The translations under genes were made by a program, and so were the position numbers. A stretch of 32,602 bases of DNA from Gemmatimonadota bacterium. GTDB lineage: Bacteria > Gemmatimonadota > Gemmatimonadetes > Gemmatimonadales > Gemmatimonadaceae. Where the stretch lies: the NCBI GenBank assembly GCA_025362095.1, contig JANYIJ010000111.1:1-32602 (forward strand), given 5' to 3'. The notes under the pieces are model-generated. The model was given only the letters and a program-made list of their open reading frames with translations. It had not been told where the DNA came from and ran no database searches. Below, in pieces: positions 10,172-29,554 of this stretch (the stretch's first letter is position 1; the number at the start of each line of letters is the position of its first letter).

Positions 10172-10226
10172 CTTTAAGTTCTCCCAACAGGTTGATTCAG
10201 TCTCTCACGGCGGTGAACTTTCTCCT
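10172..10226. promoter_or_regulatory. divergent promoter region of the dinB and fqr operons
   Basis: Only 55 nt separate the two start codons, so the promoters of a four-gene and a seven-gene operon must overlap or lie inside coding sequence. No strong -35/-10 pair was found. GAACTTTC at 10215-10222, 4 nt before the fqr ATG, resembles the TAnnTTTG-like boxes seen before other SD-less genes here. AAGTTC/GAACTT arms (10176-10181, 10215-10220) are far apart and may be chance. Confidence 0.45.
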
Positions 10227-11243
10227 ATGCCGCACGAGATCCGGGATATCACGATAATTGGCGCGGGGCCCGCTGGGCTCTTTGCCCAATTTTACGCCGG
10301 CATGCGTGGCGCGTCCGCACAGATCGTCGATGCGCTTTCGGAACCCGGTGGACAGCTCACCGCGCTGTATCCGGAAAAGTACATCTTCGATGTGGGCGGG
10401 TTCCCAAAGATACTCGCCAAAGATCTTGTTCGCTCGCTCGTCGAGCAGGCCGCGCAATTCGGACAGCCTGTGCACTGCAATCAGCGCGTCGTCGCGCTCG
10501 AGGAAGCGGGCGGCCACTTCACGCTCGTGACGGAGACTGACCGCTTTCCCACGCGATCGATCGTCGTCGCCGCCGGCATCGGCGCGTTCGAGCCGCGCCG
10601 CCTTCCGCAGGCGGCGGCCGCTCCGTGGTACGGCCGCGGGATCTACGATCGCGTCTCCGATCCGTCGGCGTTCGATGGACAGCGCGTGGTGATCGTCGGC
10701 GGCGGCGACTCGGCGTTCGACTGGGCGCACCAGCTGCGCGGCCGCGCGGCGAGCGTGGCGCTGGTGCACCGCAGCGACCGCTACCGTGCGCATGCGGCGA
10801 CCGTCGCGGCTGTACAGGCTGCAGCGGACGCGGGCGAGACCACGCTGCACCCGTTCCACGAGCTGCACGAAGTGGTCGAGGAAAATGGAAAAATTGTCGC
10901 GATCGATCTCAAGGACATCAAGGCGAAATCCACGAGGCGCATTCCCGCCGACGTCGTGCTGCCGATGCTCGGCTTTGTGAGCGACATCGGGCCGCTGGCG
11001 TCGTGGGGGCTGCGCGTGGAGAACGACGAGATCGTCGTGAACTCGCAGATGGAAACGGGACGCGCCGGCGTGTACGCGGCGGGCGACGTGACGACCTACG
11101 CGGGAAAACTCAAGCTCATCGCCACGGGATTCGGCGAGGCTGCCTGCGCGGTGAATCAGGCGGTGCACCACATCTACCCCGAGAAGAAAGTGAATCCGGG
11201 GCATTCGTCGAACCTCGCGATTTTCGGGCAGAAGGACGACTGA
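10227..11243 (+). CDS. ferredoxin/flavodoxin--NADP+ reductase (thioredoxin reductase-like)
   Basis: A 338-residue flavoprotein of the thioredoxin-reductase-like FNR type (YumC family), which moves electrons between NADPH and ferredoxin or flavodoxin. The FAD dinucleotide fold is TIIGAGPAGLFAQ near residue 10, the NAD(P) fold is VVIVGGGDSAFDWA near residue 157, and the FAD-closing motif is GVYAAGDVTTYAGKLKLI near residue 287. The redox CxxC of true thioredoxin reductase is absent, which separates the two. The ATG at 10227 was chosen because it gives the normal family start; the open frame before it is the antisense of dinB. No Shine-Dalgarno is obvious. Its stop shares a base with the tamA start (TGATG), tying it to the TamAB operon. 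Confidence 0.92.
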   Translation: MPHEIRDITIIGAGPAGLFAQFYAGMRGASAQIVDALSEPGGQLTALYPEKYIFDVGGFPKILAKDLVRSLVEQAAQFGQPVHCNQRVVALEEAGGHFTLVTETDRFPTRSIVVAAGIGAFEPRRLPQAAAAPWYGRGIYDRVSDPSAFDGQRVVIVGGGDSAFDWAHQLRGRAASVALVHRSDRYRAHAATVAAVQAAADAGETTLHPFHELHEVVEENGKIVAIDLKDIKAKSTRRIPADVVLPMLGFVSDIGPLASWGLRVENDEIVVNSQMETGRAGVYAAGDVTTYAGKLKLIATGFGEAACAVNQAVHHIYPEKKVNPGHSSNLAIFGQKDD

Positions 11244-13510
11244 TGAAATCGCGAGGTCGCCGGTGTGGCTGGGCCCTGCCGGTGGCCGTGCTGCTCGCGG
11301 TGACTGCGGGCGCGTCGCACGCTCAGGACCTGAGCTGCGGACCCGGCGATCAGGAAGTCATGCGGCTCGCCTTCGAGGGAAACAAGGCGTTCGCCAGCGC
11401 CGTGCTCGAGAACGGCATCGTGACGGCGCCGTCGACGTTTCTCCAGCGCACGATCCACTGGCTCGGGGCGCGGCACTGTCTCAACCGCAAGGAATTTCCG
11501 CTCGACCGGCTGCGCCTGATCATCTGGTATCGCAATCACGGGTACGCATCCGTCACGGTGGACACCATCGTGACGCCGCTCTCACCCGGCCAGATCGGTG
11601 TGCGGTTCTCAATTCACGAAGGCGAGCCGACGATCGTCGACACGCTCGAGATCACCGGGCTCGATTCAGTGCCCGAGCGCGCGGCGATCATGAAGGGATT
11701 GTCGGCGAAGGCTGGACGGCCGTTCGACAAATACGCGAACGACACGACGGTTCTGCTGATCACGCAGCGCCTGCACAACGGCGGATATCCCAACGCGGAA
11801 GTGTTTCCCGGCTACGACACGCATCCGGCGGCCCACCGCGCGAACGTTTCGTTTGCAGTGACGACGGGGACGCGCATGCGGCTTGGCGCGGTGACGCTGA
11901 AAGTGGATCCACGACCGGGCGCGTCGCGCGCCGTGACCGACAATGCGATCCGGCACGTGGCGCAGCTGAACGCCGGCGATTTGTACTCGCAGGCGGATCT
12001 CGAGCGGGCGAAGCTCGCGCTGTATCAGACACAGGCGTTCTCGCGCGTGACAGTCGTGCCGGAGCCGGACTCCGTACGGCCGAAGGGCAGCACGACCGTG
12101 CCGGTCTCGTTGCTGATGACCGAGGGATTCATGCACGAGCTGAAGCCGAGCATTGGCTACGGCACCCTCGATTGCTTTCGCACCAGCACGGATTACACGC
12201 TGTACAGCCTGATGGGCGGCGCAACGCGGCTGGACATGCACGGCAAGCTTTCGAAGATTGGAGTCGGCAGTCCGCTCAGCGGTCTCGAGTCGCTGTGCCC
12301 CGACGCGCGCAAAGATCTGTACAGCAAAAATCTTAATTATTTCGCGGGCGCGACGGTTTCGCGGCCGGCGATTTTCAAAGGAGTCGTGCCGTCGTTCTCG
12401 CTCTACAGCGAGCGGCGCTCGGAGTTCGACGCCTACCTGCGGACGACTCCGGTGGGCGGCAACGTGACGTTCGCGCGGCCCCGCGGCCGCCTGACCGAAG
12501 CGTTCTCGTACTCGGTGGAATATGGCCGCACCGAGGCGCAGCCCGCGCTGCTGTGCGCAGTGTTCAACGCCTGCGAGGCGACGGACCGCGAGTTCGTGCA
12601 GCGACTCCAGCGGCTCGCCGTGGCGAGCGTCTCGATGTCGAACGACGCGACGGACAACCCGGTAAATCCGACACACGGCACGGTGATCCGCTTCGAACTC
12701 CGCACGGCGGGCGCACACACCGGATCGGATCCGTCGCTGCATTTCAACAAGATTCTCGTCGACGGCGCGGCGTACATGCAGATCACCAACGACGTCGTGC
12801 TTGCGGCGCGTCTGCGATTCGGCGCGGTGCTCGGCTCCAGCTTTGGCTTCAACAATTCCGCGGCATTCATTCCGCAGCAGGAGCGCCTCTTCGCCGGCGG
12901 CCAGACGAGCGTTCGCGGGTTCCAGCAGAACGAGCTCGGGCCCGCCGTCTACATTCCGACGGCGTTCGACACGGTGCAAACGGACGGCATCACGCACTCG
13001 GACCTCAAGGACTCGACGCAAATCGCGTACTTCCGCGCGAAAAACACCGTCGGCCAGCGCACGATTCCAACCGGCGGCAACGCGCTTACGGTGGGCATGC
13101 TCGAGGCGCGGTTCCGCAGTCCGGTGCTTTCCGACGTGCTTACGTGGGCGCTGTTCGTCGATGCGGGCGCCGTGTGGAACGTCGGCAAGGAGGGCGAAGG
13201 GATCAGCGGCAGCACGCTGCTCTGGACGCCGGGATTCGGCGCGCGCTTTCGCACGCAGGTGGGCGTGCTGCGCATGGACCTCGCGTACAATCCGTACCGC
13301 CGGCCGCCCGGCGCTGCGTACTACGACACGCCGGTCGCGTCCGGCGGCGCGCTGTTCTGCGTGAGCCCGACGAACACGCTTCGCGTGACGAGCGTGAATG
13401 GGGTGGTGCAGCAGGCGCCGGGCGCGTGCCCGGTCTCGTTCCAGCCGCCGCTGCAGACCTCGTGGTTCCGCCGGCTGACGTTCGTGCTCACGCTGGGCGA
13501 GGCGTTCTAG
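11243..13510 (+). CDS. tamA: TamA-like Omp85 outer-membrane protein (BamA/TamA family)
   Basis: A 755-residue Omp85-superfamily barrel. A Sec signal peptide (residues 1-28, ending SHAQ) is followed by POTRA-like repeats to about residue 300 (for example VDTLEITGLDSVPER and MRLGAVTLKV). A 16-strand-type barrel follows with the conserved VRGF motif (arginine at 558) and a C-terminal phenylalanine. BamA is usually more conserved and carries five POTRA domains; the location directly before tamB favours TamA, the outer-membrane half of the translocation and assembly module that moves proteins or lipids to the outer membrane. It starts by a one-base overlap with the reductase and ends 3 nt before tamB. 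Confidence 0.88.
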   Translation: MKSRGRRCGWALPVAVLLAVTAGASHAQDLSCGPGDQEVMRLAFEGNKAFASAVLENGIVTAPSTFLQRTIHWLGARHCLNRKEFPLDRLRLIIWYRNHGYASVTVDTIVTPLSPGQIGVRFSIHEGEPTIVDTLEITGLDSVPERAAIMKGLSAKAGRPFDKYANDTTVLLITQRLHNGGYPNAEVFPGYDTHPAAHRANVSFAVTTGTRMRLGAVTLKVDPRPGASRAVTDNAIRHVAQLNAGDLYSQADLERAKLALYQTQAFSRVTVVPEPDSVRPKGSTTVPVSLLMTEGFMHELKPSIGYGTLDCFRTSTDYTLYSLMGGATRLDMHGKLSKIGVGSPLSGLESLCPDARKDLYSKNLNYFAGATVSRPAIFKGVVPSFSLYSERRSEFDAYLRTTPVGGNVTFARPRGRLTEAFSYSVEYGRTEAQPALLCAVFNACEATDREFVQRLQRLAVASVSMSNDATDNPVNPTHGTVIRFELRTAGAHTGSDPSLHFNKILVDGAAYMQITNDVVLAARLRFGAVLGSSFGFNNSAAFIPQQERLFAGGQTSVRGFQQNELGPAVYIPTAFDTVQTDGITHSDLKDSTQIAYFRAKNTVGQRTIPTGGNALTVGMLEARFRSPVLSDVLTWALFVDAGAVWNVGKEGEGISGSTLLWTPGFGARFRTQVGVLRMDLAYNPYRRPPGAAYYDTPVASGGALFCVSPTNTLRVTSVNGVVQQAPGACPVSFQPPLQTSWFRRLTFVLTLGEAF

Positions 13511-13513
13511 GCG

Positions 13514-16500
13514 ATGGGACGCCACCGGCTGGTTGTGCTGCTGAGCGCACTCGTGATGCTGCTGATCGGCGGGGGAATCGTCGGCGGTCTGATGGCCGCG
13601 ACGCAGAGCGATGGCGGGCGCGAGTGGATCCGCGGGCAGCTCGTCCGCCAGATCGCGCGCGGAATGCACAGACGGCTCGTGATGGGAAAGATCTCCGGAT
13701 CGTTCCTCACGGACTTCGAGGTCGACTCGCTCTCGCTGATCGGGCCCGACGATTCCGTGTTCATCGCGACTGGTCCCCTGCACGTCACCTACGACCCGCG
13801 CGATCTGATCGACGGCCGCATCATCGTGCGCTCGGTCGAGCTCATGCACCCGTTCTTCGTCATCCGGAAGGGGAACGACAACGTCTGGAACTACGACAAA
13901 GTTTTTCCGCCCTCGAAGACGAAACCCGGCGCGAGCCCGCCGCTCTCGCGCAACGCGTTCGGCGCGATCGTGCAGTTCCGCAATGTGCGTATTCGCGGCC
14001 TGCATTTTCAGCTCACGCTGCCCTGGTCTCCCGACGATTCGCTCAGGGGCGCGCGCCGCGACAGCGCGATCGTCCGCAACCTCGCGTCGAAAGACCAGGA
14101 GATCCGCGCGGTCGTGGTGAAGGGGAAGCGCGGCTACCAGCGCACGACGCGCTGGACGGAGGGGAACTTCACGTTCAACCGCATCCGCTTCCGCGAGCCG
14201 GGACAGCCGGGGATCCAGTTCGACATCGCGCGATTCGACGTGAACGAACACTCGCCGCCGTTTCTCATTCGCAACATGCGCGGCCTTGTGAACTGGCGGA
14301 ACGATTCGCTTTCGATCGACGTGCGCCACCTCGAGCTCCCGGGCTCTGTTGCCAGGGCGACCGGACGCCTCGACTGGGCGGGCGGCAAGCCGATGCAGTA
14401 CGACCTGCACATCAACAGTGATTCCGTCTCGCTGCGCGACATCGCGTGGATCGCGTCGTCCATTCCCAAAACGGGCGGCGGCTCGATGTCGCTCCATATC
14501 AAGAACGACCGCGACCCGCGCCTGCTCGACTACGCGATCGAGAAGATGGACCTGCGCACGAACGCGTCGCGTCTGCGCGGCGCCATGACGTTCGCCGTCG
14601 GCGGCCCGGTGCTCGTGCTGAAGGACATGGCCATCGAGGCGGTACCGCTTGATTTTGCATTGATCACGGCGATGAACGGCGCGCCGTTTCCGCAGCCGTG
14701 GAATGGATCGTTCGCGGGCACCGTGCGCGCGAGCGGTGGGCCGGTGAATCACTTCGTCGTCGACGATCTCAAGCTCACGTACACCGACCGCAACGTCGCC
14801 GGCGCGATCACGCAATTCGCAGGCAAAGGCGAGCTCGACATCATGAATCCGGGGAGCACGACGTTCCACGGATTTCATCTCAACCTCGCGCGCTTCGACC
14901 TGCGCACGCCGCAATTCCTGAGCCCGGGATTCCCGCGCCTGAACGGCATCATCTCCGGCAGCGCAACGCTGGACTCGGCGTGGACCGATGTGCGGTTCCG
15001 CGACGCCGACATCACGCACAGTGACGGCGACAGCACACCGCCCTCGCGTTTCAAAGGCGACGCGCGGCTCTCGACACTCGGCGCCAACGTCGCGTTCGAC
15101 GTCGCGGTCGCTGCGCTCCCGATTTCGATGACCACGCTCGCGCGCTCCTACCCCGGACTGCCGCTGCGCAGCGAGTACTCCGGCCCGATGCGCCTGCAAG
15201 GCGACGTCAGGGATTTCAGCGCGACAGCGGATCTCACGGGAGACGCCGGCCGCTTCCAGATCGAAGGCCAGTTCGACGCCGCCGCGCCGGGATACCGTGC
15301 GTCGTCGCGCGGATCTGTCGCCGGCCTCGACCTGAGCCGCGCGCTCGCGCGCACCGGCGCGCCGCAGACAACGCTCAACGGGCGCTTCGTCACTTCACTC
15401 GAGTTCGACTCGCTGCCGAACATGCTCGGCGACGCGCAGTTCTTCCTCGACCGCTCGCTGATCGACGGCGTTCGAGTGTACGCGGGGCAGGCGGCGTTGC
15501 GGTTCGCCGGAGGCGCGATGATGGTGGACACGCTCCGCGTCGAGTCCTCCAGCGGGACGCTGACCGCGCGCGGCGGCCTCGGTCTCGCGGCCACGCGCAG
15601 CGACTCGCTCTTCTTCCGCCTCGACGTTGACTCACTCGGCGGACTCCGCCGCTATCTCGTGAAGGCGCGCACGAAAATCGACTCGCTCGCCCGCAAAGAC
15701 ACCGCGGCGGTTGCGCTCGCGGCGCTCGCGGATTCGCTCGGCGGATCTTTCAGCGCGAGCGGCACACTGCTCGGCCGACTCTCGAAGTTCGGGGTGCGTG
15801 CGACTGCGCATGGCACGCAGCTGCGCATCGGCACGCTCACCGCGCGCCAGGCAACGCTCACGGCGAATATCGGATCGCTCCCCGACTCGGCGACCGGGGC
15901 CTTCTCGTTCACGCTCGACACGCTGCGCCTCGGCACACTCGCGTACTCGCGACTTTCCGTCCGCGACAGCCTCTCCGGTCGCGACCGCCAGCGCGTGACA
16001 CTCGCGGCGAAGTCCGCGCTCGACTCCGCGCGCGCGACGGCCAACATCGACTTTCGCGGTGACACGATCGCCGTGGCCGTCGACAGTCTCTCGATTCAGA
16101 CATCGGCCGACTCGTGGCTCCTCCGGAAGCGGGCGCAGATCGCAATTGTTAACGGCGCGCTCTCCGTCGACTCGATCGCGCTCAGCGGAAAAACCGGCGG
16201 CTTCTTCGCGCTCAGCGGCAAGACGACGGCGGACTCGGCCGTCTTCCTCGGGATCCGCTCCGACTCCGTGCCGCTCGCCGACATCGGCGAGCTGATGCAG
16301 ATGCAGTCGCCGTTCGAAGGAACGCTTTCGCTCAGCGCTGATCTTCGCGGCACGCGCGAAAGACCCGTGATGAAGTTCGATGCGACGCTTCGCCACGGCG
16401 TGCTGCTCGGACTGAGACTCGATGAGTTTCGCGCCAATGGCGACTATGACAACCGGCGGCTGTCGGCGGCGCTCACGTATTCGCGCCTCGGGCTGCCCGC

Positions 16501-18097
16501 AATGCACGGACTCGCCAAACTGCCCCTCGATCTCGCGCTGAGCGCCACCGGCTCCCGGTTCATCGACGAACCGCTCGTCGCGAGTATTCACACCGACAGC
16601 GGCGGTATGGCGATTTTGTCGGCGCTCTCGAAGTCGGTGACGAAAGCAAGCGGATCGCTCGCGCTAGATCTCGACGTGACGGGAACCTGGACACACCCGC
16701 TGCTTAAGGGCGCGCTCGTGGTGCACCAGGGCGAACTGTCTGTTGAGCCGCTTGGTGCGGTGCACCTCACCGCGCTGGAGGCGAACATCGGGTTCCACGG
16801 TGACAGCATCGCTGGCGTCGTCACTGCGCTCAGCGGAAAGACGAAGCCGGCAACCGGCGCACTCTCGGGCTTCGTGGGAATTCGCGACATCGCGAAGCCC
16901 GTGTACGGTCTCAAGCTCGTGGCCGACAACTTCAACGTGATCGACAAGGCGAAGTTCGCCACGCTCGATCTTACGGGCAACCTGGGGCTCACAGGCAGCA
17001 GCGATGCCGCGACGCTCACCGGCGCGCTCACCGTGGACCGCGGCAGCCTCTCGATTCCGGACCTCCAGAGCAAACACTTGATCTCGCTCGACGATCCGGA
17101 GTTCTACAAAGTGGTGGACACGAGCGCGTTCGAGGATCGTCACCTGCTGCCGGCGCCGCCGCTGTCGATCATCAGCAATCTTCGCGTCGACAACCTCACG
17201 GTGCAGATGGGGAAGGACGTCTGGCTCAAATCGGCCGAGGCAAATATCAACCTCGGCGGCGACGTCACGATTACGAGCACGACATCGCAGCAGGGACGCA
17301 GCGCCGGCCGCGTGCAACTCGCGCTCGACGGCGCGCTCCAAACTGTGCGCGGCACGTACAGGCTGGGCCTCGCGCCGGGGGTGTCGCGCTCGTTCACAGT
17401 CGAGAACGGCGAGGTGCGCTTCTTTGGCGATCAGGATTTAAACGGGCAGCTGAACGTCAACGCGCTCTACACCGTCCGCCAGTCGAGCCAGCAGGGCGCG
17501 CGGCAGGACGTGCGCGTGCGCGTGCATCTCGGCGGCACGCTCAACGTCCCGAAGGTGGAGCTTTCGAGCCCCGACTCTCAGCGCGTCTCGAACGCCGATC
17601 TCGTCAGCTATCTGGCGACGGGACAGCCGAGCAGCCAGATCGGCGGCGCGAACGGCGACTACACCTCCACCGCAGTAAACGTTTTCCTGAGCTCCGGATA
17701 TCAGTTCAACGCGGGCGGTCTTTGCGACGACGCGGCCTTCAGCGCCGGCGGCTTCGATCCCTCCGGCCGCATTCGCGATGTGAGCGGTGGCATTCTCGCC
17801 GGCGCGCGACTCAACTGTTCGCGGCAGTTCGGCGACAAAGTTCTGATTCGTCTCGACTACGGACTCTGCCAGGTGGGACAGCTCGTCGGCGGCGGCAGCG
17901 GCACGAGTGATCCGCTCACTTTTGCGGACGCGATCGGACTGAAGGCGGACTTCCAGCTGAGTTCTTCGCTCACGCTTTCGGCCGGTATCGAACCGCCCAC
18001 GAGCGCAGTGCTCTGCACGCGCGATGCAAGCGCGCGGGGCTTCGCGCCAACGCCACGACAATTCGGCATCGACCTGTTCCGGGTCTGGCGCTTCTGA
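13514..18097 (+). CDS. tamB: TamB-like translocation/assembly module protein (DUF490)
   Basis: A 1527-residue protein with one N-terminal membrane anchor (about 6-30), a very long periplasmic region of beta-rich repeats (many DSL/DSLS/GTL-type strands), and a C-terminal TamB/DUF490 domain. The C-terminal domain is recognisable in GTYRLGLAPGV, VRVHLGGTLNVPKVELSSP and NADLVSYLATGQ. TamB spans the periplasm as a hydrophobic groove and works with TamA; AsmA-like relatives move phospholipid to the outer membrane. The length is at the upper end of the family. The C terminus after about residue 1395 has extra barrel-like strands. It follows tamA by 3 nt, and its stop overlaps a CTG that probably starts the histidine kinase. 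Confidence 0.92.
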   Translation: MGRHRLVVLLSALVMLLIGGGIVGGLMAATQSDGGREWIRGQLVRQIARGMHRRLVMGKISGSFLTDFEVDSLSLIGPDDSVFIATGPLHVTYDPRDLIDGRIIVRSVELMHPFFVIRKGNDNVWNYDKVFPPSKTKPGASPPLSRNAFGAIVQFRNVRIRGLHFQLTLPWSPDDSLRGARRDSAIVRNLASKDQEIRAVVVKGKRGYQRTTRWTEGNFTFNRIRFREPGQPGIQFDIARFDVNEHSPPFLIRNMRGLVNWRNDSLSIDVRHLELPGSVARATGRLDWAGGKPMQYDLHINSDSVSLRDIAWIASSIPKTGGGSMSLHIKNDRDPRLLDYAIEKMDLRTNASRLRGAMTFAVGGPVLVLKDMAIEAVPLDFALITAMNGAPFPQPWNGSFAGTVRASGGPVNHFVVDDLKLTYTDRNVAGAITQFAGKGELDIMNPGSTTFHGFHLNLARFDLRTPQFLSPGFPRLNGIISGSATLDSAWTDVRFRDADITHSDGDSTPPSRFKGDARLSTLGANVAFDVAVAALPISMTTLARSYPGLPLRSEYSGPMRLQGDVRDFSATADLTGDAGRFQIEGQFDAAAPGYRASSRGSVAGLDLSRALARTGAPQTTLNGRFVTSLEFDSLPNMLGDAQFFLDRSLIDGVRVYAGQAALRFAGGAMMVDTLRVESSSGTLTARGGLGLAATRSDSLFFRLDVDSLGGLRRYLVKARTKIDSLARKDTAAVALAALADSLGGSFSASGTLLGRLSKFGVRATAHGTQLRIGTLTARQATLTANIGSLPDSATGAFSFTLDTLRLGTLAYSRLSVRDSLSGRDRQRVTLAAKSALDSARATANIDFRGDTIAVAVDSLSIQTSADSWLLRKRAQIAIVNGALSVDSIALSGKTGGFFALSGKTTADSAVFLGIRSDSVPLADIGELMQMQSPFEGTLSLSADLRGTRERPVMKFDATLRHGVLLGLRLDEFRANGDYDNRRLSAALTYSRLGLPAMHGLAKLPLDLALSATGSRFIDEPLVASIHTDSGGMAILSALSKSVTKASGSLALDLDVTGTWTHPLLKGALVVHQGELSVEPLGAVHLTALEANIGFHGDSIAGVVTALSGKTKPATGALSGFVGIRDIAKPVYGLKLVADNFNVIDKAKFATLDLTGNLGLTGSSDAATLTGALTVDRGSLSIPDLQSKHLISLDDPEFYKVVDTSAFEDRHLLPAPPLSIISNLRVDNLTVQMGKDVWLKSAEANINLGGDVTITSTTSQQGRSAGRVQLALDGALQTVRGTYRLGLAPGVSRSFTVENGEVRFFGDQDLNGQLNVNALYTVRQSSQQGARQDVRVRVHLGGTLNVPKVELSSPDSQRVSNADLVSYLATGQPSSQIGGANGDYTSTAVNVFLSSGYQFNAGGLCDDAAFSAGGFDPSGRIRDVSGGILAGARLNCSRQFGDKVLIRLDYGLCQVGQLVGGGSGTSDPLTFADAIGLKADFQLSSSLTLSAGIEPPTSAVLCTRDASARGFAPTPRQFGIDLFRVWRF

Positions 18098-21000
18098 GTC
18101 CCGGCGACGCGACGCCCTCCAGCGCCGTCGAACGGCTGCAGCGCCTGCAGGAAGTCAGCGCGGCGCTGAACCGCTCGCTGGATCGCGACGACGTCGAACA
18201 CGAACTCGCGCGTCATACCGCTCTCGTGATCGGCTGCAGCGGCGTGGTGGTCGCGCGGCCGGGTGATTCAGGCACCGCAACGCTCGTGCTGCACTGGCGC
18301 GACGGCGCCGCACAGGAGCTCGCAGGAGCAGAACTGGTGAAGCACACGGTATCCGACGTGGTGCGCACCGGACTTGCGGCGCGTGGCGCGCCGAAGATTC
18401 TCGCCGTGCCGGTCCGCGCCGGGTCCAATCTCGTCGCCGTGCTCGCAGTGTACGGGGGCGGTGGCACGGAATTCGGCGCGGAGGAAGAGGAGCTTCTCGG
18501 CACGCTCGCTGCGACCGCTGCCACCGCGCTCGTGAACGCGAGTCTGTTCGCCGAGAGCCTGCGCGACAAGCGGCAGAGCGAGGCGCTCGCTGCTCTCGCG
18601 GCCACGCTCGGTCAGTCGCTAAAACTTTCCGAGGTGCTGCGGCTCTCGCTCAAGCACGCCGCGGCGATCCTGGGCGCAGAGGGTGCAGTGGTGGGGCTGC
18701 GGCGCGGCGAGTTCCTGCACATCGTGGCGGCCGAGGGAACGGGATCGGCGGTGCACGGGCTCTACGTGCCGCTAATGGAAAGCCACACGGGGCGGGCGAT
18801 GCTCGAAGGCCGCACACTCATCATGAACCACGTTACGGCCGATGGGATCACCTACGAGCGGGTGCGCACGCTAGCACCGGTGGAGAAGATCATCTCGGCG
18901 CCGATGCTCACGCCCGACGGGCCGATTGGTGTGCTGAGCGTCGCGAACCGCGCGGCGGATTTCACGGAGGAAGATGCGCGCGTGCTCGAGCGCCTGGCAT
19001 CGCAGCTTGCGCTCGCCGTCGTGAACGCGCGGCTGTACGAGGAGGCGAGCGACGCGACGCGTGAGCTCAGCGTCGCGTTCGACGCGATCGCCGGCGGGAT
19101 GGCCGTCGTGGACAGCGAGGGATTCATCACTCGGCACAATGCGCGGCTCGCGACGTTCTCCGCGCTTGATGCGAGTGAACCGCTGATCGGCCGTGCGCTA
19201 TTCGCCGTGCTCCTGCGCGAGCCGCGCGAGCTCGATGCAAACGATCCGCTCGGAACCGCCATCCTCCGGCGCGAGGTGGGGCGCGGCACGATCCGCCAGC
19301 CGTCGAGCGGCAAGGTGTTCGACATCGTCGCGTCGCCGCATCCTGCTGGCGGCGCGGTGGTGACGGTAGACGACGTCACGGGTTTTCACGCGCTGACCGA
19401 GCGCTATCGGCTCGTGGTGGAGTCCACCACGGACGCAATCTTGATAACCTCGAAAGTCGGTGCAATAGACTTCGCGAACGATGCGGCGATCGCGCTGCTC
19501 TCTCCCGCGGGATCGCTCGAGGGTGTGCCACTGGCCTCGTTCGTGCCTCCGTCGATGAAAAAGGAATTCGAAGGCCACGTCGCGCGGGCGCTGCTCGGCG
19601 AGGCAATGCGGTTCAACGGCGCGGTGATACGCGGCGATGCGGAAGAGCGGCGCGTGTCCATGAGTCTCGCGCCGATTCGCGGCGGCGGACCGGTCACCGG
19701 TCTCGTCGCGTCGATTCGCGATGTGAGCGACGAAACCCGCGCGCGTGACGAAGCGGCGGCGGCCAACGCGCGTTATCGGAATCTCGTGGAGGTCGCGTCC
19801 GACGCGATCTACACGCTCGACGGAAAGGGGATCTTCACCGCCGCGAATCTTGCGACGGAGACGCTCCTCGGCCTGCCGCGCGACGCGCTGCTGGGCCGGA
19901 GCATCGTGCCCTTCCTGGAGCCCGCGGAGACGGCGGAGCTGCGCGCGTACTTCCTGTCGGCGTTTGGCGGCAGCGCCGAGCGCTACGAGTGTCATGTCGT
20001 GCGCGCGGACGGCACGCGGCGGCTCATTTCCGTTTCAAACACGCCAATCAAGCGGGGCGCCCGCGTGATGGGCGTCCTCGGTGTCGCGCGCGACGTAACC
20101 GACGATCGCGCGCGGGCGGCGGCGCTCGAGCGCGCCGAGGCCCGCTACACGCGCCTCGTCGAGTCTGCAGAAGACGCGATCTGCACCGCCGATGAAGAAG
20201 GAAACTTCACCTCGGTGAACAAGGCGCTCGAACGCGTGATGGGCCGCGGCCGCGAAGCGCTGCTCGGCACCCACTTTACGGAGCTCGTGCACGCCAGCGA
20301 GCGCGGCGAACTCTGGCTGATGTTTGTCGCCTCGCTCGAGGGGAAACGGCAGCGCCGCGAGATGCGTTTCACGCGCGCCGACGGCGTCGAGCGCGTGGCC
20401 ACAGTCATTACCGCGCCCATTTATGAACACGGGCAGGTGAGCGCGGTTCTGGCCATCATTCGCGACGTGACCGAGGAGCGCATGCTGCTCGAGCAGCTCG
20501 TGCGGCGCGAAAAGCTCGCGGCGCTCGGCGAGCTCGTCGGCGGCGTGGCGCACGAAGTGAACTCGCCGCTCACGGGGATCCTCGCGTTCGGGCAGATTCT
20601 CCAGCTTGAGGCCGCGGGGAACGAGGAGTCGCGGCGTGCCGCGGACACGATCGTGGCGGAGGCCAAGCGCGCTGCGCGAATCGTAGGGAAACTCCTGACG
20701 TTTGCGCGGCAGAATCCCCCTGAGAAGCTGCGCACGGAACTGAATCAGGTGCTGCTGGACACGATTGAGCTCCGCCGCTATCCGCTGAAGATGCAGCAGA
20801 TCGCGCTGGTCGTGGAATTCGCGGATGGACTACCGGTCACTTGGGCCGATCCATTCCAACTGCAGCAGGTATTCATTAACCTGCTGTCGAACGCAGAGCA
20901 GGCGCTGGCCTCGCGCGCGGGGGAGCGGCGCATCACGGTTCGGACCGGAATGCGCGACGGGTCGCTGGTGGCGACGGTCGCCGATACGGGCCCCGGCATT

Positions 21001-21204
21001 GCGCCGGAGCATCTTCCACACATTTTCAATCCGTTCTATACGACCAAACCCCGCGGCGTCGGCACGGGCCTCGGGCTCTCTATCAGCTTCGGCATCGTGC
21101 GCGAGCACGGCGGAATGCTGCAGGTGGTGTCAGAAACAGGAAAAGGCGCTGCGTTCGAGGTTATTTTGCCTGTTGTGACGCCCCCCTCTCATAGCGGCGG
21201 GTAG
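18094..21204 (+). CDS. soluble GAF/PAS sensor histidine kinase (NtrB-like core), apparent CTG start
   Basis: About 1036 residues from CTG 18094. Order: GAF 1 (about 8-150), GAF 2 (about 160-320), four PAS domains (about 324-430, 436-555, 560-680, 683-800), HisKA with GGVAHEVNSPLTG (phospho-histidine about 820), and HATPase with the N box NLLSNAEQAL, G1 VADTGPGIAP and G2 GVGTGLGLS. There is no membrane helix, so it senses cytosolic ligands such as redox state or small molecules. The first conventional start (GTG 18226) would delete the first helix and strand of GAF 1; the frame upstream encodes sensible GAF sequence (AVERLQRLQEVSAALNRSL) and meets the tamB stop as CTGA. It pairs with the response regulator 3 nt downstream. 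Confidence 0.9.
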   Translation: MSPGDATPSSAVERLQRLQEVSAALNRSLDRDDVEHELARHTALVIGCSGVVVARPGDSGTATLVLHWRDGAAQELAGAELVKHTVSDVVRTGLAARGAPKILAVPVRAGSNLVAVLAVYGGGGTEFGAEEEELLGTLAATAATALVNASLFAESLRDKRQSEALAALAATLGQSLKLSEVLRLSLKHAAAILGAEGAVVGLRRGEFLHIVAAEGTGSAVHGLYVPLMESHTGRAMLEGRTLIMNHVTADGITYERVRTLAPVEKIISAPMLTPDGPIGVLSVANRAADFTEEDARVLERLASQLALAVVNARLYEEASDATRELSVAFDAIAGGMAVVDSEGFITRHNARLATFSALDASEPLIGRALFAVLLREPRELDANDPLGTAILRREVGRGTIRQPSSGKVFDIVASPHPAGGAVVTVDDVTGFHALTERYRLVVESTTDAILITSKVGAIDFANDAAIALLSPAGSLEGVPLASFVPPSMKKEFEGHVARALLGEAMRFNGAVIRGDAEERRVSMSLAPIRGGGPVTGLVASIRDVSDETRARDEAAAANARYRNLVEVASDAIYTLDGKGIFTAANLATETLLGLPRDALLGRSIVPFLEPAETAELRAYFLSAFGGSAERYECHVVRADGTRRLISVSNTPIKRGARVMGVLGVARDVTDDRARAAALERAEARYTRLVESAEDAICTADEEGNFTSVNKALERVMGRGREALLGTHFTELVHASERGELWLMFVASLEGKRQRREMRFTRADGVERVATVITAPIYEHGQVSAVLAIIRDVTEERMLLEQLVRREKLAALGELVGGVAHEVNSPLTGILAFGQILQLEAAGNEESRRAADTIVAEAKRAARIVGKLLTFARQNPPEKLRTELNQVLLDTIELRRYPLKMQQIALVVEFADGLPVTWADPFQLQQVFINLLSNAEQALASRAGERRITVRTGMRDGSLVATVADTGPGIAPEHLPHIFNPFYTTKPRGVGTGLGLSISFGIVREHGGMLQVVSETGKGAAFEVILPVVTPPSHSGG

Positions 21205-21207
21205 CAG

Positions 21208-22563
<1,356 letters not shown>

Positions 22564-22566
22564 GGA

Positions 22567-22761
22567 ATGAAGAAGGAGGCGCCGGTGGCTGAGACGGATG
22601 CAATGAAGTGCAGGTCTTGCGGCGCCATCGAGCGGGCGTCGGAAGGCTATCCGTGCAAAGGCTGCGGCACCTTCATCTGCGTGCTGTGCAATCTGCGCGG
22701 AAAAATTTTCTGCAAAGAGTGCGTCGCTAAGGGCTCCGTCGCCGAAACGCCCGCCACGTGA
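22567..22761 (+). CDS. eight-cysteine zinc-ribbon-like mini-protein
   Basis: A 64-residue protein, or 58 residues from GTG 22585. Four CxxC pairs (C15/C18, C30/C33, C38/C41, C49/C52, numbered from the ATG) suggest two zinc sites, perhaps in a cross-brace like RING or FYVE folds. There is no membrane segment or signal peptide. It sits 3 nt after the response regulator and overlaps the peptidase start (GTGA), so it is co-translated with both. GGAGG at 22575-22579 is well placed for the internal GTG. It could be an adaptor or a nucleic-acid-binding protein; family not recognised. Confidence 0.75.
   Translation: MKKEAPVAETDAMKCRSCGAIERASEGYPCKGCGTFICVLCNLRGKIFCKECVAKGSVAETPAT
22575..22579 (+). 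promoter_or_regulatory. Shine-Dalgarno favouring an internal GTG start
   Basis: GGAGG lies 5 nt before GTG 22585 inside the annotated start of the mini-protein. The upstream ATG at 22567 has only TGAGGA, overlapping the previous stop. Either start keeps all eight cysteines. Confidence 0.5.
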
Positions 22762-23735
22762 GTCCGCGCGCCGCGCTGGACGGCCACGGATTCGGCATCG
22801 CGGTTGGACACGCGACGGATTCCGACGGCGGCACGGGAGTGACGGTGATTCGCGGAATCGACGCGCCGATGCGGGCGTCGGCGCATGTGCTCGGACGCGC
22901 CACCGGTTCGCGTGAACTCGCGCTGCTCGAACCAGCGGCGCGCAACGACCGGGTCGACGCGATCATGCTCACCGGCGGCTCAGCCTACGGACTCGATGCG
23001 GCCGCCGGCGTGATGCGCTGGATGGAAGAGCATGGACGCGGCTTTCCGGTGCCCGGCGGCGTGGTGCCGATCGTTCCGGCGGCGGTGCTGTTCGATCTCA
23101 TCCCGCTCGGCCGATTCGATGCGCGACCCACCGCTGAGATGGCGTATCGCGCGTGCGCCGGGGCGACGCCAAGTGAGATCGAAGAGGGGAGCGTCGGCGC
23201 GGGAACGGGCTGCACGGTGGGAAAGGCGGCCGGGCCCGCACAATGTATGAAGGGCGGAGTCGGCGTGGCGATCGCCGGAACTGAAGGCGCAGCCGGCGTG
23301 ATGGCGGCGGCGATCGTCGCGGTGAACGCGTTCGGACACGTGTGTGATGCGACGGGCAAGATCATCGCGGGGCCGCGCGGTGCGGACGGTTCGATGATCG
23401 ACACGGAACGTGCGATTATGAGCGGCGCGGTTGCCGGTCCTCGCGCGGCGAGTGCGAACACGACGCTTGGGGTGGTCGCGCTGAATGTCGCCTTCTCGAA
23501 AGTCGATCTTCACCAGATCGCGCGCGCGGCGAGCGCGGCGTTCTATCGGCGTATTCGGCCCGCGGGAACGAGCTACGATGGCGATGTGATTTTCGCGGTG
23601 TCGCCGATGGAGGGCAGAACGGCTCCGCTTTTGAGTGCCGAAGTTGCGGCGGTCGCGGCGGTGGAAGGGGCTATCGAGCGAGCGGTGCGATTCGCGAAGG
23701 GGCGCGACGGTATTCCAGGACTCGCCGAAGGGTAG
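22758..23735 (+). CDS. P1 family peptidase (DmpA/S58 aminopeptidase-like)
   Basis: A 325-residue Ntn-like hydrolase of the DmpA/BapA (MEROPS S58) family. Members are made as a precursor that cleaves itself into alpha and beta chains and then act as aminopeptidases, often on D-amino-acid or beta-amino-acid peptides. The likely self-cleavage site is N234/T235 in ANTTLGVVALN; other family segments are MLTGGSAYGLDAA, the GAGTGCTVGK loop and GGVGVAI. No signal peptide is present, so it should be cytosolic. The GTG start overlaps the mini-protein stop by 4 nt. Last gene of the reductase-TamAB-kinase-regulator run. The natural substrate is unknown. Confidence 0.9.
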   Translation: MSPRAALDGHGFGIAVGHATDSDGGTGVTVIRGIDAPMRASAHVLGRATGSRELALLEPAARNDRVDAIMLTGGSAYGLDAAAGVMRWMEEHGRGFPVPGGVVPIVPAAVLFDLIPLGRFDARPTAEMAYRACAGATPSEIEEGSVGAGTGCTVGKAAGPAQCMKGGVGVAIAGTEGAAGVMAAAIVAVNAFGHVCDATGKIIAGPRGADGSMIDTERAIMSGAVAGPRAASANTTLGVVALNVAFSKVDLHQIARAASAAFYRRIRPAGTSYDGDVIFAVSPMEGRTAPLLSAEVAAVAAVEGAIERAVRFAKGRDGIPGLAEG

Positions 23736-26515: not shown

Positions 26516-29174
26516 TCGCGACGCCATCGCGGCGCAGTTCGTGATGCCCGAGTTCACGCGCGCACTGCGCGGCCTCGCATCGGCGGGCGCGCTCGGTCGC
26601 GAGGAACACGCGAGCGTTTTCGGCCCGTTGCTCGCGGCGCGCCGGATGGCGGAGCAGGCCGGGAGCCTGCGCGCACGCGTCGCGGCGTTCGACGCCGCGC
26701 GGCTGAAGCGCGCGTGGATCGAGTCGGTCGAGTCGATCGCGGCGGCGCGCGTGCCGAAAGCCGGCGCCGACCGCCGCGCGATCACGGCACGACTGACGGA
26801 GCAGTCCGGTCAGATGCTCGCGGCGATCGCCGCGCTCGAAACGGCCGCGGAGCCCGTGCGGCTCGCGGGAGAAACGTCAGGACTCGATTCGTGGAACGCG
26901 TGGATCGCTTCGGTGCAAACACTGTTCGATTCCGCGGATCGTTTCTGGTTCGTTATCGAGCCCGAACTCAATCCGCGGCCGCAGCCGAAGAAAAAAAACG
27001 CTAGAGGAGCCGCGGCGCGCGCGATCGTCGTCGCGCTGCTGGGCGTCTCCGCGTTCGGCGCGACTGCGCGCGCCCAGCGCGTCACGGTACGCGTGCAGGG
27101 TGTCTCACCAGACTCGCTGCGCGCGCGCGGGTTCGATGTTGTGGGAGTGGATCGTGGCGCTCCGCTGGTCGTCGCCGATCCCGCCCAACTCGCGAAAATG
27201 GAGGCGCGCGGATGGCACGGGGCGCTCTTCCGCACCGCGAGTGCTCCCGCTGCGACGCGGATCGCGGCGCAGACGATCGTCGGCACGCAGGTGTATCGCG
27301 ACTACGACGATCCCGCGCGCGGCGTGCGCGCGTTCATTGATTCGATGGTGAAGAACAATCCGCGGGTCTCGGTCGACACGCTTGGATTTTCGTTTCAGGG
27401 ACGGCCGATGCTCGCCGTGAAGATCGGCGCGAAGGACGACAGCCCGCAGCGTCCCAACGTGCTGTACATGGCGGCGTATCATGCGCGCGAGTGGGCCGCG
27501 ACCGACATGACGCTGCGCCTCATCAAGTATCTCGCGGCGCCGCCGGGTTCGAACCCGCGCGTGGATTCACTCGTGCAGACGCGCGACATCTGGATCCTGC
27601 CCGTCGCCAATCCCGACGGCTACGAGTACACGTTCACGAACGACCGTCTCTGGCGAAAGACGCGGACTCCCCAGGCCGGCGGCGCGTTCGGCGTGGACAT
27701 GAATCGCAATCACAGGCAGAACTGGGGACTCGACGACGTCGGCTCGTCGTCCGATCCGACCTCCGAAATTTATCGGGGCACGGTGCCGGCGTCGGAGATC
27801 GAAACGCGCAACATCGAGGCGTTTCACGCCGCGCATCCGCCGGTGATCTCGATCAGCTACCACACCTACGCAGGGTTGCTCCTGTTTTCCCCGAGTTCGG
27901 TGTACGGACAGCTCTCATCGGATCTTCCGGTGTATCGCACGCTCGCCGGCACGAACCAGCGTTCCGCCGTGAAGGACAATCTCCCCGGCTCCGCGCGCTC
28001 GTACTATTCACCCAACACGTCGTGGACGCTGTACACGACGAACGGCGAGTACAACGACTGGGCGTCCGCGAAGTACGCCGCGCTCTCATTCACGCCAGAG
28101 ATCTCGAGCGGATATCAAAACAGCAGCTACTACGGCTTCGAGTTTCCGGACAACGAATCGCAGCTGCAGCAGCTCTTCACCGACAACCTCCCGTTCGCGA
28201 TCGACGCGCTGGAGAGCGCGCGCGATCCGTTCGCGTACGTGAGCCCCACGACGTTCTATCACACGGACCGCGTCGTGCTCGAGAGCGTCTCGCCCACGAT
28301 CCAGGCGACCGTACCTGCGGCGATGGCCTCCGGCGCGTCGATCTCAGCGCCGAATCCGCTCTCCTTTCGCGTCGACTCGATCGCCGCCGGCAAGTACACG
28401 CGGCGCATCATCGCGGCGCCCGCCTCGCGTCCGACAACGCTGAGCATCGGCGCGGGCGGCCAGACCGCCAGCTTCAGCGTGCTCGGCATCAACGGCGCGG
28501 AGAACGCCGAAACAGGCTGGACCGCCAACCAGTTCCGGCGCGATTCATTGTTCGCGATGGCGGGGAAGTATTCGTGGTACACACCCTCGGGCGGAGATTT
28601 GAAATCGCCCGTGATCCACGTGCCAGCCGACGCAGACACCGTCTCTCTCGTGTTCTGGACGCGCTACGCAGGCAGCGGATTTACCGAACTCCCGTATGGA
28701 GACGTGAATCTTTCAACCGATGGCGGCTCGAGCTTTCAGCGCGTGATGCGACTCGAAGGCTATGCGCCGGTGTTCTATCCCGAGCAAGTCACGATCGGCG
28801 GCGTGAAGGGAAAACAGCTCGTGTTCGCCTTCGTGTCGAATGGCTTTCCGTGGAGCCTCGACGAAATCGCCGTCGTCGCGCATGGAGCCGTCACCAACTC
28901 GACCACGACGTTCGTGGGCACGCTCATCCCTTCGGAAAATCCTGTCCACCACGCGGTCGTCTATTTCCCCTGGCCGTTCACCAACGCGACGGGCGACATT
29001 CAGGCGTACGATTTCAGCGGCCGCCTCATCTGGAAATCGAACGTCACCGCTCCGGGCAACGTGGCATGGGATCTCAACGCGGGGCGCGTGGCCAATGGCG
29101 TGTACGTGGTGATCGCGCGCAGCGGAAGCAAGATGCTGCGGCTGAAACTGTTCGTGGCGAGAAACGGGCCATGA
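26508..29174 (+). CDS. fused frame: unknown cytosolic domain + M14 zinc carboxypeptidase with T9SS-like C-terminal domain
   Basis: A single 888-residue frame. Residues 1-163 are an Ala/Arg-rich, mostly helical domain that was not recognised. A lysine run encoded by eight adenines (26991-26998) follows, then a signal-peptide-like stretch (about 166-189, ending TARAQ) in an internal position. The M14 carboxypeptidase domain has zinc ligands H325 and E328 (HARE) and H452 (SYHTY), substrate-binding R400 (DMNRNH) and catalytic E531 (FTPEI). A beta-rich domain and a C-terminal segment (PSENPV, then IQAYDFSGRLIW and GVYVVIARSG) resemble type IX secretion sorting or FlgD-Ig domains. A cytosolic domain before a signal peptide is odd; one extra A would end the first domain at TAG 27002. 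It overlaps acpS by 4 nt. Confidence 0.82.
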   Translation: MPDRDAIAAQFVMPEFTRALRGLASAGALGREEHASVFGPLLAARRMAEQAGSLRARVAAFDAARLKRAWIESVESIAAARVPKAGADRRAITARLTEQSGQMLAAIAALETAAEPVRLAGETSGLDSWNAWIASVQTLFDSADRFWFVIEPELNPRPQPKKKNARGAAARAIVVALLGVSAFGATARAQRVTVRVQGVSPDSLRARGFDVVGVDRGAPLVVADPAQLAKMEARGWHGALFRTASAPAATRIAAQTIVGTQVYRDYDDPARGVRAFIDSMVKNNPRVSVDTLGFSFQGRPMLAVKIGAKDDSPQRPNVLYMAAYHAREWAATDMTLRLIKYLAAPPGSNPRVDSLVQTRDIWILPVANPDGYEYTFTNDRLWRKTRTPQAGGAFGVDMNRNHRQNWGLDDVGSSSDPTSEIYRGTVPASEIETRNIEAFHAAHPPVISISYHTYAGLLLFSPSSVYGQLSSDLPVYRTLAGTNQRSAVKDNLPGSARSYYSPNTSWTLYTTNGEYNDWASAKYAALSFTPEISSGYQNSSYYGFEFPDNESQLQQLFTDNLPFAIDALESARDPFAYVSPTTFYHTDRVVLESVSPTIQATVPAAMASGASISAPNPLSFRVDSIAAGKYTRRIIAAPASRPTTLSIGAGGQTASFSVLGINGAENAETGWTANQFRRDSLFAMAGKYSWYTPSGGDLKSPVIHVPADADTVSLVFWTRYAGSGFTELPYGDVNLSTDGGSSFQRVMRLEGYAPVFYPEQVTIGGVKGKQLVFAFVSNGFPWSLDEIAVVAHGAVTNSTTTFVGTLIPSENPVHHAVVYFPWPFTNATGDIQAYDFSGRLIWKSNVTAPGNVAWDLNAGRVANGVYVVIARSGSKMLRLKLFVARNGP

Positions 29175-29554
29175 TTGCGGGCATGGGGATCGATCTCGTC
29201 GACATCGCTCGCGTCGAGCGCATGCTCGACGACAAAGGCCAGCGCGTGCTCGACCGTCTCTTCACGCCCGACGAAGTCGCCTACGCGATGGCGCGCGCAC
29301 GGCCCGCCATGCATCTCGCTGCGCGGCTCGCCGCGAAAGAGGCCGCGTTCAAGGCGCTCGCGGGATCCGACGACGCGCGCCTCATTGGATGGCGCGAGGT
29401 CGAGGTCATCGCCCGCGACGGGCACTCGCCGACGCTCCTGCTCACTGGCCGCGCCGACATCCGCGCCCGCGAACTTGGCATAGAGCACCTCTGGCTCTCG
29501 CTCACCCACACAGACTCGACCGCGGCCGCAACGGTTATTCTGGAACGGGCATAG
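29171..29554 (+). CDS. acpS: holo-[acyl-carrier-protein] synthase
   Basis: A 127-residue AcpS that transfers 4'-phosphopantetheine from coenzyme A to apo-ACP for fatty-acid synthesis. The N-terminal signature GIDLVDIARVER carries the metal-binding D8, and AAKEAAFKAL carries E57; LSLTHTD near residue 110 is the conserved C-terminal strand. The length is normal. The ATG at 29171 overlaps the peptidase stop (ATGA) and gives the usual MIxGxGID start; a long in-frame extension through the peptidase gene was rejected. Last gene of the EamA-acpS run. Confidence 0.94.
   Translation: MIAGMGIDLVDIARVERMLDDKGQRVLDRLFTPDEVAYAMARARPAMHLAARLAAKEAAFKALAGSDDARLIGWREVEVIARDGHSPTLLLTGRADIRARELGIEHLWLSLTHTDSTAAATVILERA

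What the first reader, a model, noticed from the sequence alone, without database searches (positions are those of the whole stretch)
10227..23735. Seven-gene operon joining TamA-TamB to a redox enzyme, a two-component system and a peptidase
All junctions overlap or are within 3 nt. TamA/TamB build the outer membrane; here they are co-translated with a flavin NADP reductase, a cytosolic GAF/PAS kinase, a GAFTGA-less regulator, an eight-cysteine mini-protein and a DmpA-type peptidase. This could be an envelope-assembly module under cytosolic redox or metabolite control, which I do not recognise as a described system.
Basis: inference. Interest (0 to 1): 0.65.

Follow-up and report, generated by a model that had tools for sequence, protein, structure and literature searches.

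The report
Gemmatimonad TamA-TamB operon with accessory genes
A run of genes that starts with the machine for building the bacterial outer membrane is conserved, with changing add-ons (lipid kinase, signalling pair, tiny zinc protein, peptidases), across one order of soil and water bacteria; the arrangement is real and undescribed, but that the signalling pair controls the membrane machine is not shown.

Summary
The seven genes are there, same strand, junctions -4 to +3 nt, although the kinase joins TamB only if it starts at CTG 18094; its sisters have an ATG there. The window is from a Gemmatimonadaceae MAG. This window is a derived form: the DAG-kinase-like gene between TamB and the kinase was lost here and in two sisters. 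The zinc mini-protein (8 Cys, 20 invariant columns in 68 sequences) has no database match, is in 122 of 145 genomes of the order with one weak hit outside, and sits at the TamB locus. Histidine kinase and regulator are the labile parts (14 and 12 changes on the tree; zinc protein 5); in 9 loci a hybrid kinase with a receiver stands without the regulator. The regulator lacks GAFTGA although the genome has RpoN and other GSFTGA activators. Right-hand neighbours (EamA, HAD) are equally syntenic, so gene order alone does not prove control of the envelope machine. Redox control has no support beyond adjacency. New variant of a known kind, moderate interest.

The parts
10192..10226 (+). core promoter: TTGATT (10192-10197), 18 nt spacer, AACTTT (10216-10221), 5 nt to the ATG; would give a leaderless FNR mRNA
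   Evidence: Same elements and spacing before the FNR start in L069-L074, weaker in L075 and in other FNR genes of the family; inference, no transcript data; the generic sigma-70 scan did not flag it
10227..11243 (+). ferredoxin/flavodoxin-NADP reductase, thioredoxin-reductase-like type
11243..13510 (+). TamA (Omp85 with POTRA domains); a second Omp85 protein, presumably BamA, is on contig C107
13514..18097 (+). TamB, N-terminal membrane helix, PF04357 at the C-terminus
18094..21204 (+). histidine kinase, two GAF and several PAS domains, HisKA, HATPase; start inferred as CTG (18094, or 18085)
21208..22563 (+). NtrC-family response regulator, AAA+ and Fis HTH intact, L1 loop without GAFTGA
22567..22761 (+). 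zinc mini-protein, eight Cys in four CxxC pairs, predicted cross-brace zinc finger, order-specific family
22758..23735 (+). peptidase family S58 (N-terminal nucleophile hydrolase, Thr nucleophile inferred)
18094..18097 (+). junction where relatives carry a diacylglycerol-kinase-like gene (DAGK_cat + YegS_C); absent here and in G027, G169

Best explanation
This is the TAM (TamA-TamB) operon of Gemmatimonadales, an envelope-lipid operon with a lineage-specific accessory cassette. Shown: TamA-TamB is followed by a DAG-kinase-like lipid kinase, an NtrC-like regulator and an 8-Cys zinc mini-protein across the order; the TamB-lipid kinase link reaches other families of the class; kinase, S58, NlpC/P60 and FNR come and go; this genome has lost the operon's lipid kinase. 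Inferred: TamA-TamB bridges the two membranes and moves phospholipid and/or helps insert outer-membrane proteins, as in E. coli; the lipid kinase fed phosphatidic acid into the same lipid supply; the cytosolic GAF/PAS kinase reads an internal metabolite signal and phosphorylates the regulator, which, lacking GAFTGA, acts at sigma-70-type promoters and tunes this operon or other envelope genes; the zinc protein is a small adaptor or sensor that belongs to TamAB rather than to the two-component pair.
For: Order and tight spacing conserved; f2/f3 loci with at least 7 kb downstream: lipid kinase 15/15, zinc protein 15/15, regulator 13/15; f1: 34/56, 42/56, 41/56. TamA-TamB-lipid kinase in f4, f7, f8, f9. 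Zinc protein in 122/145 genomes of the order, 1 weak hit outside. Regulator lacks GAFTGA while RpoN is in 246/249 genomes and three other activators in this genome have GSFTGA; its order relatives mostly show GAFTDA. GAFTGA-less NtrC proteins acting at sigma-70 promoters are known (PMC10274813). TamB in phospholipid transport: PMC8593681.
Against: Genes right of the operon with other roles are as syntenic as the core (DUF6941 49/54, EamA 49/54, HAD 52/54), so neighbourhood alone is weak evidence of function. Kinase and regulator change 14 and 12 times on the TamA tree. No operator-like motif was found upstream. No transcript or phenotype data. The lipid kinase is missing from the operon in this very genome.
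Confidence: 0.45

Rival explanations
1. Syntenic housekeeping block: genes of different pathways share one transcript because the region rarely rearranges; the two-component pair has nothing to do with TamAB.
For: EamA, HAD and DUF6941 to the right are as conserved as the core; HK, RR and S58 come and go many times; HK presence is independent of RR presence next to TamB (24/12 against 23/12, p = 1).
Against: The core is tightly spaced across distant families (TamA -1 TamB, DAGK -8 RR in f2); the left flank is not conserved (DinB 2/54); the zinc protein is near-universal in the order and sits at this locus.
Confidence: 0.35
2. Signalling module moving from transcription to protein-level output: the regulator lost GAFTGA, and in several lineages only a receiver on a hybrid kinase is left, which acts on a neighbouring protein (TamB cytosolic end, lipid kinase or zinc protein).
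For: Series GAFTDA, loop lost, hybrid kinase without regulator; zinc protein kept without the regulator in 11 loci.
Against: AAA+ and Fis HTH are intact in this window; the zinc protein is also gone where the hybrid kinase stands alone in the L110-L116 clade.
Confidence: 0.12
3. Redox control of envelope assembly: the FNR changes the redox state read by the GAF/PAS kinase.
For: FNR is translationally coupled to tamA in this window and in related genera.
Against: FNR near TamA in few f2/f3 loci (2/15); FNR has its own promoter where it stands apart; no cofactor-binding signature of the PAS domains was tested.
Confidence: 0.05

Closest known systems
TamA-TamB translocation and assembly module (TAM) operon
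   Same: TamA followed by TamB, POTRA + Omp85 and PF04357 domains; a second Omp85 in the genome
   Different: Carries lipid kinase, regulator, zinc protein and peptidases; Heinz et al. 2015 (PMC4494059) describe TamA/TamB/TamL operons and do not mention Gemmatimonadetes in the main text
GAFTGA-less NtrC regulators (Caulobacter and Rhodobacter NtrC, VspR)
   Same: Receiver, AAA+ and Fis HTH kept, sigma-54 loop lost, in a genome that still has RpoN (PMC10274813)
   Different: Not an NtrC orthologue (below the NCBIfam cut-offs for NtrC, NtrX and AtoC); order relatives carry GAFTDA
Peptidase S58: NylC / ThnT / DmpA
   Same: Pfam S58, Asn-Thr-Thr motif as in polyamide hydrolases
   Different: Thr, not Ser, as inferred nucleophile; substrate unknown
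Cross-brace zinc fingers (RING, PHD, C1, ZZ, FYVE)
   Same: CxxC-x11-CxxC-x4-CxxC-x7-CxxC spacing; most leading Foldseek hits are of this kind
   Different: No significant sequence or structure match (best Foldseek E 0.32; best Pfam E 0.01, below cut-off)

Membership tests
TAM (TamA-TamB) | TamB C-terminal domain PF04357 and N-terminal membrane anchor | tested here: met
   124 bits against cut-off 22.4; hydrophobic helix at residue 6
TAM (TamA-TamB) | Omp85 with POTRA domains distinct from BamA, next to tamB | tested here: met
   PF01103 and PF07244; another Omp85 on C107; scores below the curated TamA equivalog cut-off (70 of 625)
TAM (TamA-TamB) | Function in OMP assembly or phospholipid transport | not testable with these tools
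   needs mutants
sigma-54 enhancer-binding protein (NtrC family) | AAA+ domain, Fis HTH | tested here: met
   PF00158 179 bits, PF02954 52 bits
sigma-54 enhancer-binding protein (NtrC family) | GAFTGA loop | tested here: not met
   ELFGVESSTDGTGGPTKRGLFE in its place; absent or degenerate in f1 relatives
DmpA-type S58 peptidase | S58 fold | tested here: met
   PF03576 E 4e-30
DmpA-type S58 peptidase | Ser N-terminal nucleophile | tested here: not met
   Thr in the aligned NTT motif; identity of the nucleophile from family knowledge
TrxR-like ferredoxin-NADP reductase | full-length similarity to solved FNRs of this type, not thioredoxin reductase | tested here: met
   3lzw, 6gas, 3ab1 E 1e-84 to 1e-76; below the TRX_reduct cut-off
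FYVE / RING / C1 / PHD zinc fingers | significant profile or fold match | tested here: not met
FYVE / RING / C1 / PHD zinc fingers | two zinc ions in cross-brace coordination | not testable with these tools
   model confident in the core (pLDDT above 90) but made without metal

The most novel reading that the evidence does not exclude
The order-specific zinc mini-protein is a lipid- or protein-sensing adaptor at the cytosolic end of TamB that, with the lipid kinase and the GAFTGA-less or receiver-only signalling parts, couples lipid supply to the rate of TAM transport: a dedicated control module for lipid traffic to the outer membrane.
Probability: 0.1. Interest if true: 0.75.

Novelty: new variant of a known kind. 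Interest (0 to 1): 0.45.

Why it matters
How phospholipid flow to the outer membrane is matched to lipid synthesis is an open question in diderm bacteria. A TamAB operon that carries a lipid kinase, a regulator and a near-universal tiny zinc protein across an order points to candidate control parts that can be tested, and it links TamB to lipid metabolism by gene context independent of E. coli genetics. It also gives a natural series of a sigma-54-type regulator losing its loop and then being lost while a receiver appears on the kinase.

Tried and rejected
Strain-specific arrangement: rejected. Loss of GAFTGA because the genome lacks RpoN: rejected, RpoN is there. Relocation of the lost lipid kinase: the two other DAGK-family genes of this genome score 116 and 156 bits against about 320-400 for complete operon copies in the order, so they are probably not the missing orthologue. 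Palindromic operator upstream of the operon: counts barely above shuffles, GC-rich words only, not claimed. Zinc protein as FYVE, RING or C1 member: no significant match. Literature on a Gemmatimonadota TAM operon, TamB with a diacylglycerol kinase, or a hybrid kinase in Gemmatimonas: nothing relevant. The structure tool names only loci of certain tools as allowed input, so the alignment was rebuilt from those.

Full report
OBSERVATION. The window is contig C91 of a 2.99 Mb assembly. Its relatives are titled Gemmatimonadaceae or Gemmatimonadetes MAGs in the public records (the contigs of G169 and G027 match L150 and L151 by length). All seven reading frames are present and the junctions are -1, +3, -4, +3, +3 and -4 nt. 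The kinase reaches TamB only with a CTG start at 18094; the first usual start codon in frame is GTG 18226. In the sisters G169 and G027 an ATG stands 2 nt after the TamB stop, and against G169 the residues upstream of 18226 are conserved, so a CTG start is the most likely reading.

WHAT THE GENES ARE. FNR of the thioredoxin-reductase-like type; TamA, with a second Omp85 elsewhere in the genome; TamB; a GAF/PAS histidine kinase without a clear transmembrane segment; an NtrC-family regulator with receiver, AAA+ and Fis HTH; a 64-residue protein with four CxxC pairs and no Pfam or NCBIfam family; an S58 hydrolase whose best solved relatives include polyamide hydrolases and ThnT, with Thr in the NTT motif.

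CONSERVATION. Eighty regions of up to 20 kb round TamB were taken from one genome per species and annotated with profiles. The general order is [FNR]-TamA-TamB-DAGK-[HK]-RR-Zn-[S58]-[NlpC/P60]. DAGK is a DAGK_cat + YegS_C lipid kinase, and the last gene is an SH3-NlpC/P60 protein. In loci with at least 7 kb downstream: other families of the order (n=15) DAGK 15, Zn 15, RR 13, NlpC 12, S58 11, HK 1; window's family (n=56) Zn 42, RR 41, HK 35, DAGK 34, S58 34, NlpC 24. Outside the order TamA-TamB-DAGK is found in families f4, f7, f8 and f9 but not in the f5, f6 and f10 loci read. The window, G027 and G169 (cut by a contig end) have lost DAGK from the operon; the other DAGK-family genes of this genome are probably not its orthologues.

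THE ZINC MINI-PROTEIN. A profile finds it in 123 of 249 genomes: 65 of 87 in the family, 57 of 58 in the rest of the order, one weak hit outside (family totals counted by me from the lists). In the 80 loci it lies beside TamB wherever the genome has it and the contig allows. In 68 sequences 20 columns are invariant. AlphaFold2 gives a confident core; Foldseek finds only weak matches, mostly to cross-brace zinc fingers. It stays in 11 loci without the regulator, while only one locus has the regulator without it.

THE TWO-COMPONENT PART IS LABILE. On a TamA tree the fewest changes are HK 14, S58 13, RR 12, DAGK 8, NlpC 7, Zn 5 (the tree is a quick one, and missed genes inflate the counts a little). 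In 9 loci a hybrid kinase with a C-terminal receiver stands without the regulator, in 8 with it. In the other families the regulator usually has GAFTDA; in the window's family the loop is gone or degenerate. RpoN is in 246 of 249 genomes including this one, and activators on C250, C17 and C7 of the same genome have GSFTGA. So the loss is specific to this regulator line. By precedent it should act at sigma-70 promoters (PMC10274813); this is inference.

PROMOTER. TTGATT-N18-AACTTT ends 5 nt before the FNR ATG and is kept in the genus while the flanks differ. It suggests a leaderless transcript from FNR. No operator was found.

CAUTION. DUF6941, EamA and HAD to the right are found in 49, 49 and 52 of 54 loci of the family, so the whole block is slow to rearrange. 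Synteny therefore supports an old operon but does not by itself show that the signalling pair acts on TamAB. Statistical associations between genes do not correct for common descent.

VERDICT. A real, conserved and, as far as the held literature goes, undescribed TAM operon variant. The redox-control reading has no evidence beyond adjacency; envelope-lipid control by the signalling pair is plausible and untested. The most interesting parts are the zinc mini-protein and the TamB-lipid kinase link; the lipid kinase could not be seen from this window alone.

Noticed in passing
29171-29554 and 32500-31655(-): AcpS-like gene (my reading of the sequence) and Lgt to the right of the operon; a zinc carboxypeptidase (M14) lies between CYTH and AcpS. 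With TamAB the stretch is rich in lipid and envelope genes.
   Followed up: partly
L094, L110-L114, L116, L121, L122: Hybrid histidine kinase with C-terminal receiver next to TamB, no DNA-binding regulator.
   Followed up: yes
L089, L090, L094, L095, L098, L106, L118 upstream of TamA: Receiver protein with a GGDEF-like second half just before TamA in one part of the family.
   Followed up: no
L132, L135 (minus strand after Zn); shorter forms in L138-L140, L146: Receiver protein, in some with an HD-GYP-like second half, inserted on the opposite strand within the cluster.
   Followed up: no
L135:7062-8813: The regulator gene looks decayed (fragments in different frames) while the zinc protein beside it is intact.
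   Followed up: no
29593-31728: FTR1 iron permease joined to a cytochrome c domain in one frame.
   Followed up: no
L071 about 9559: The lipid kinase of G092 has no usual start codon at its expected start and may also start at a CTG that overlaps the TamB stop (CTGA).
   Followed up: no
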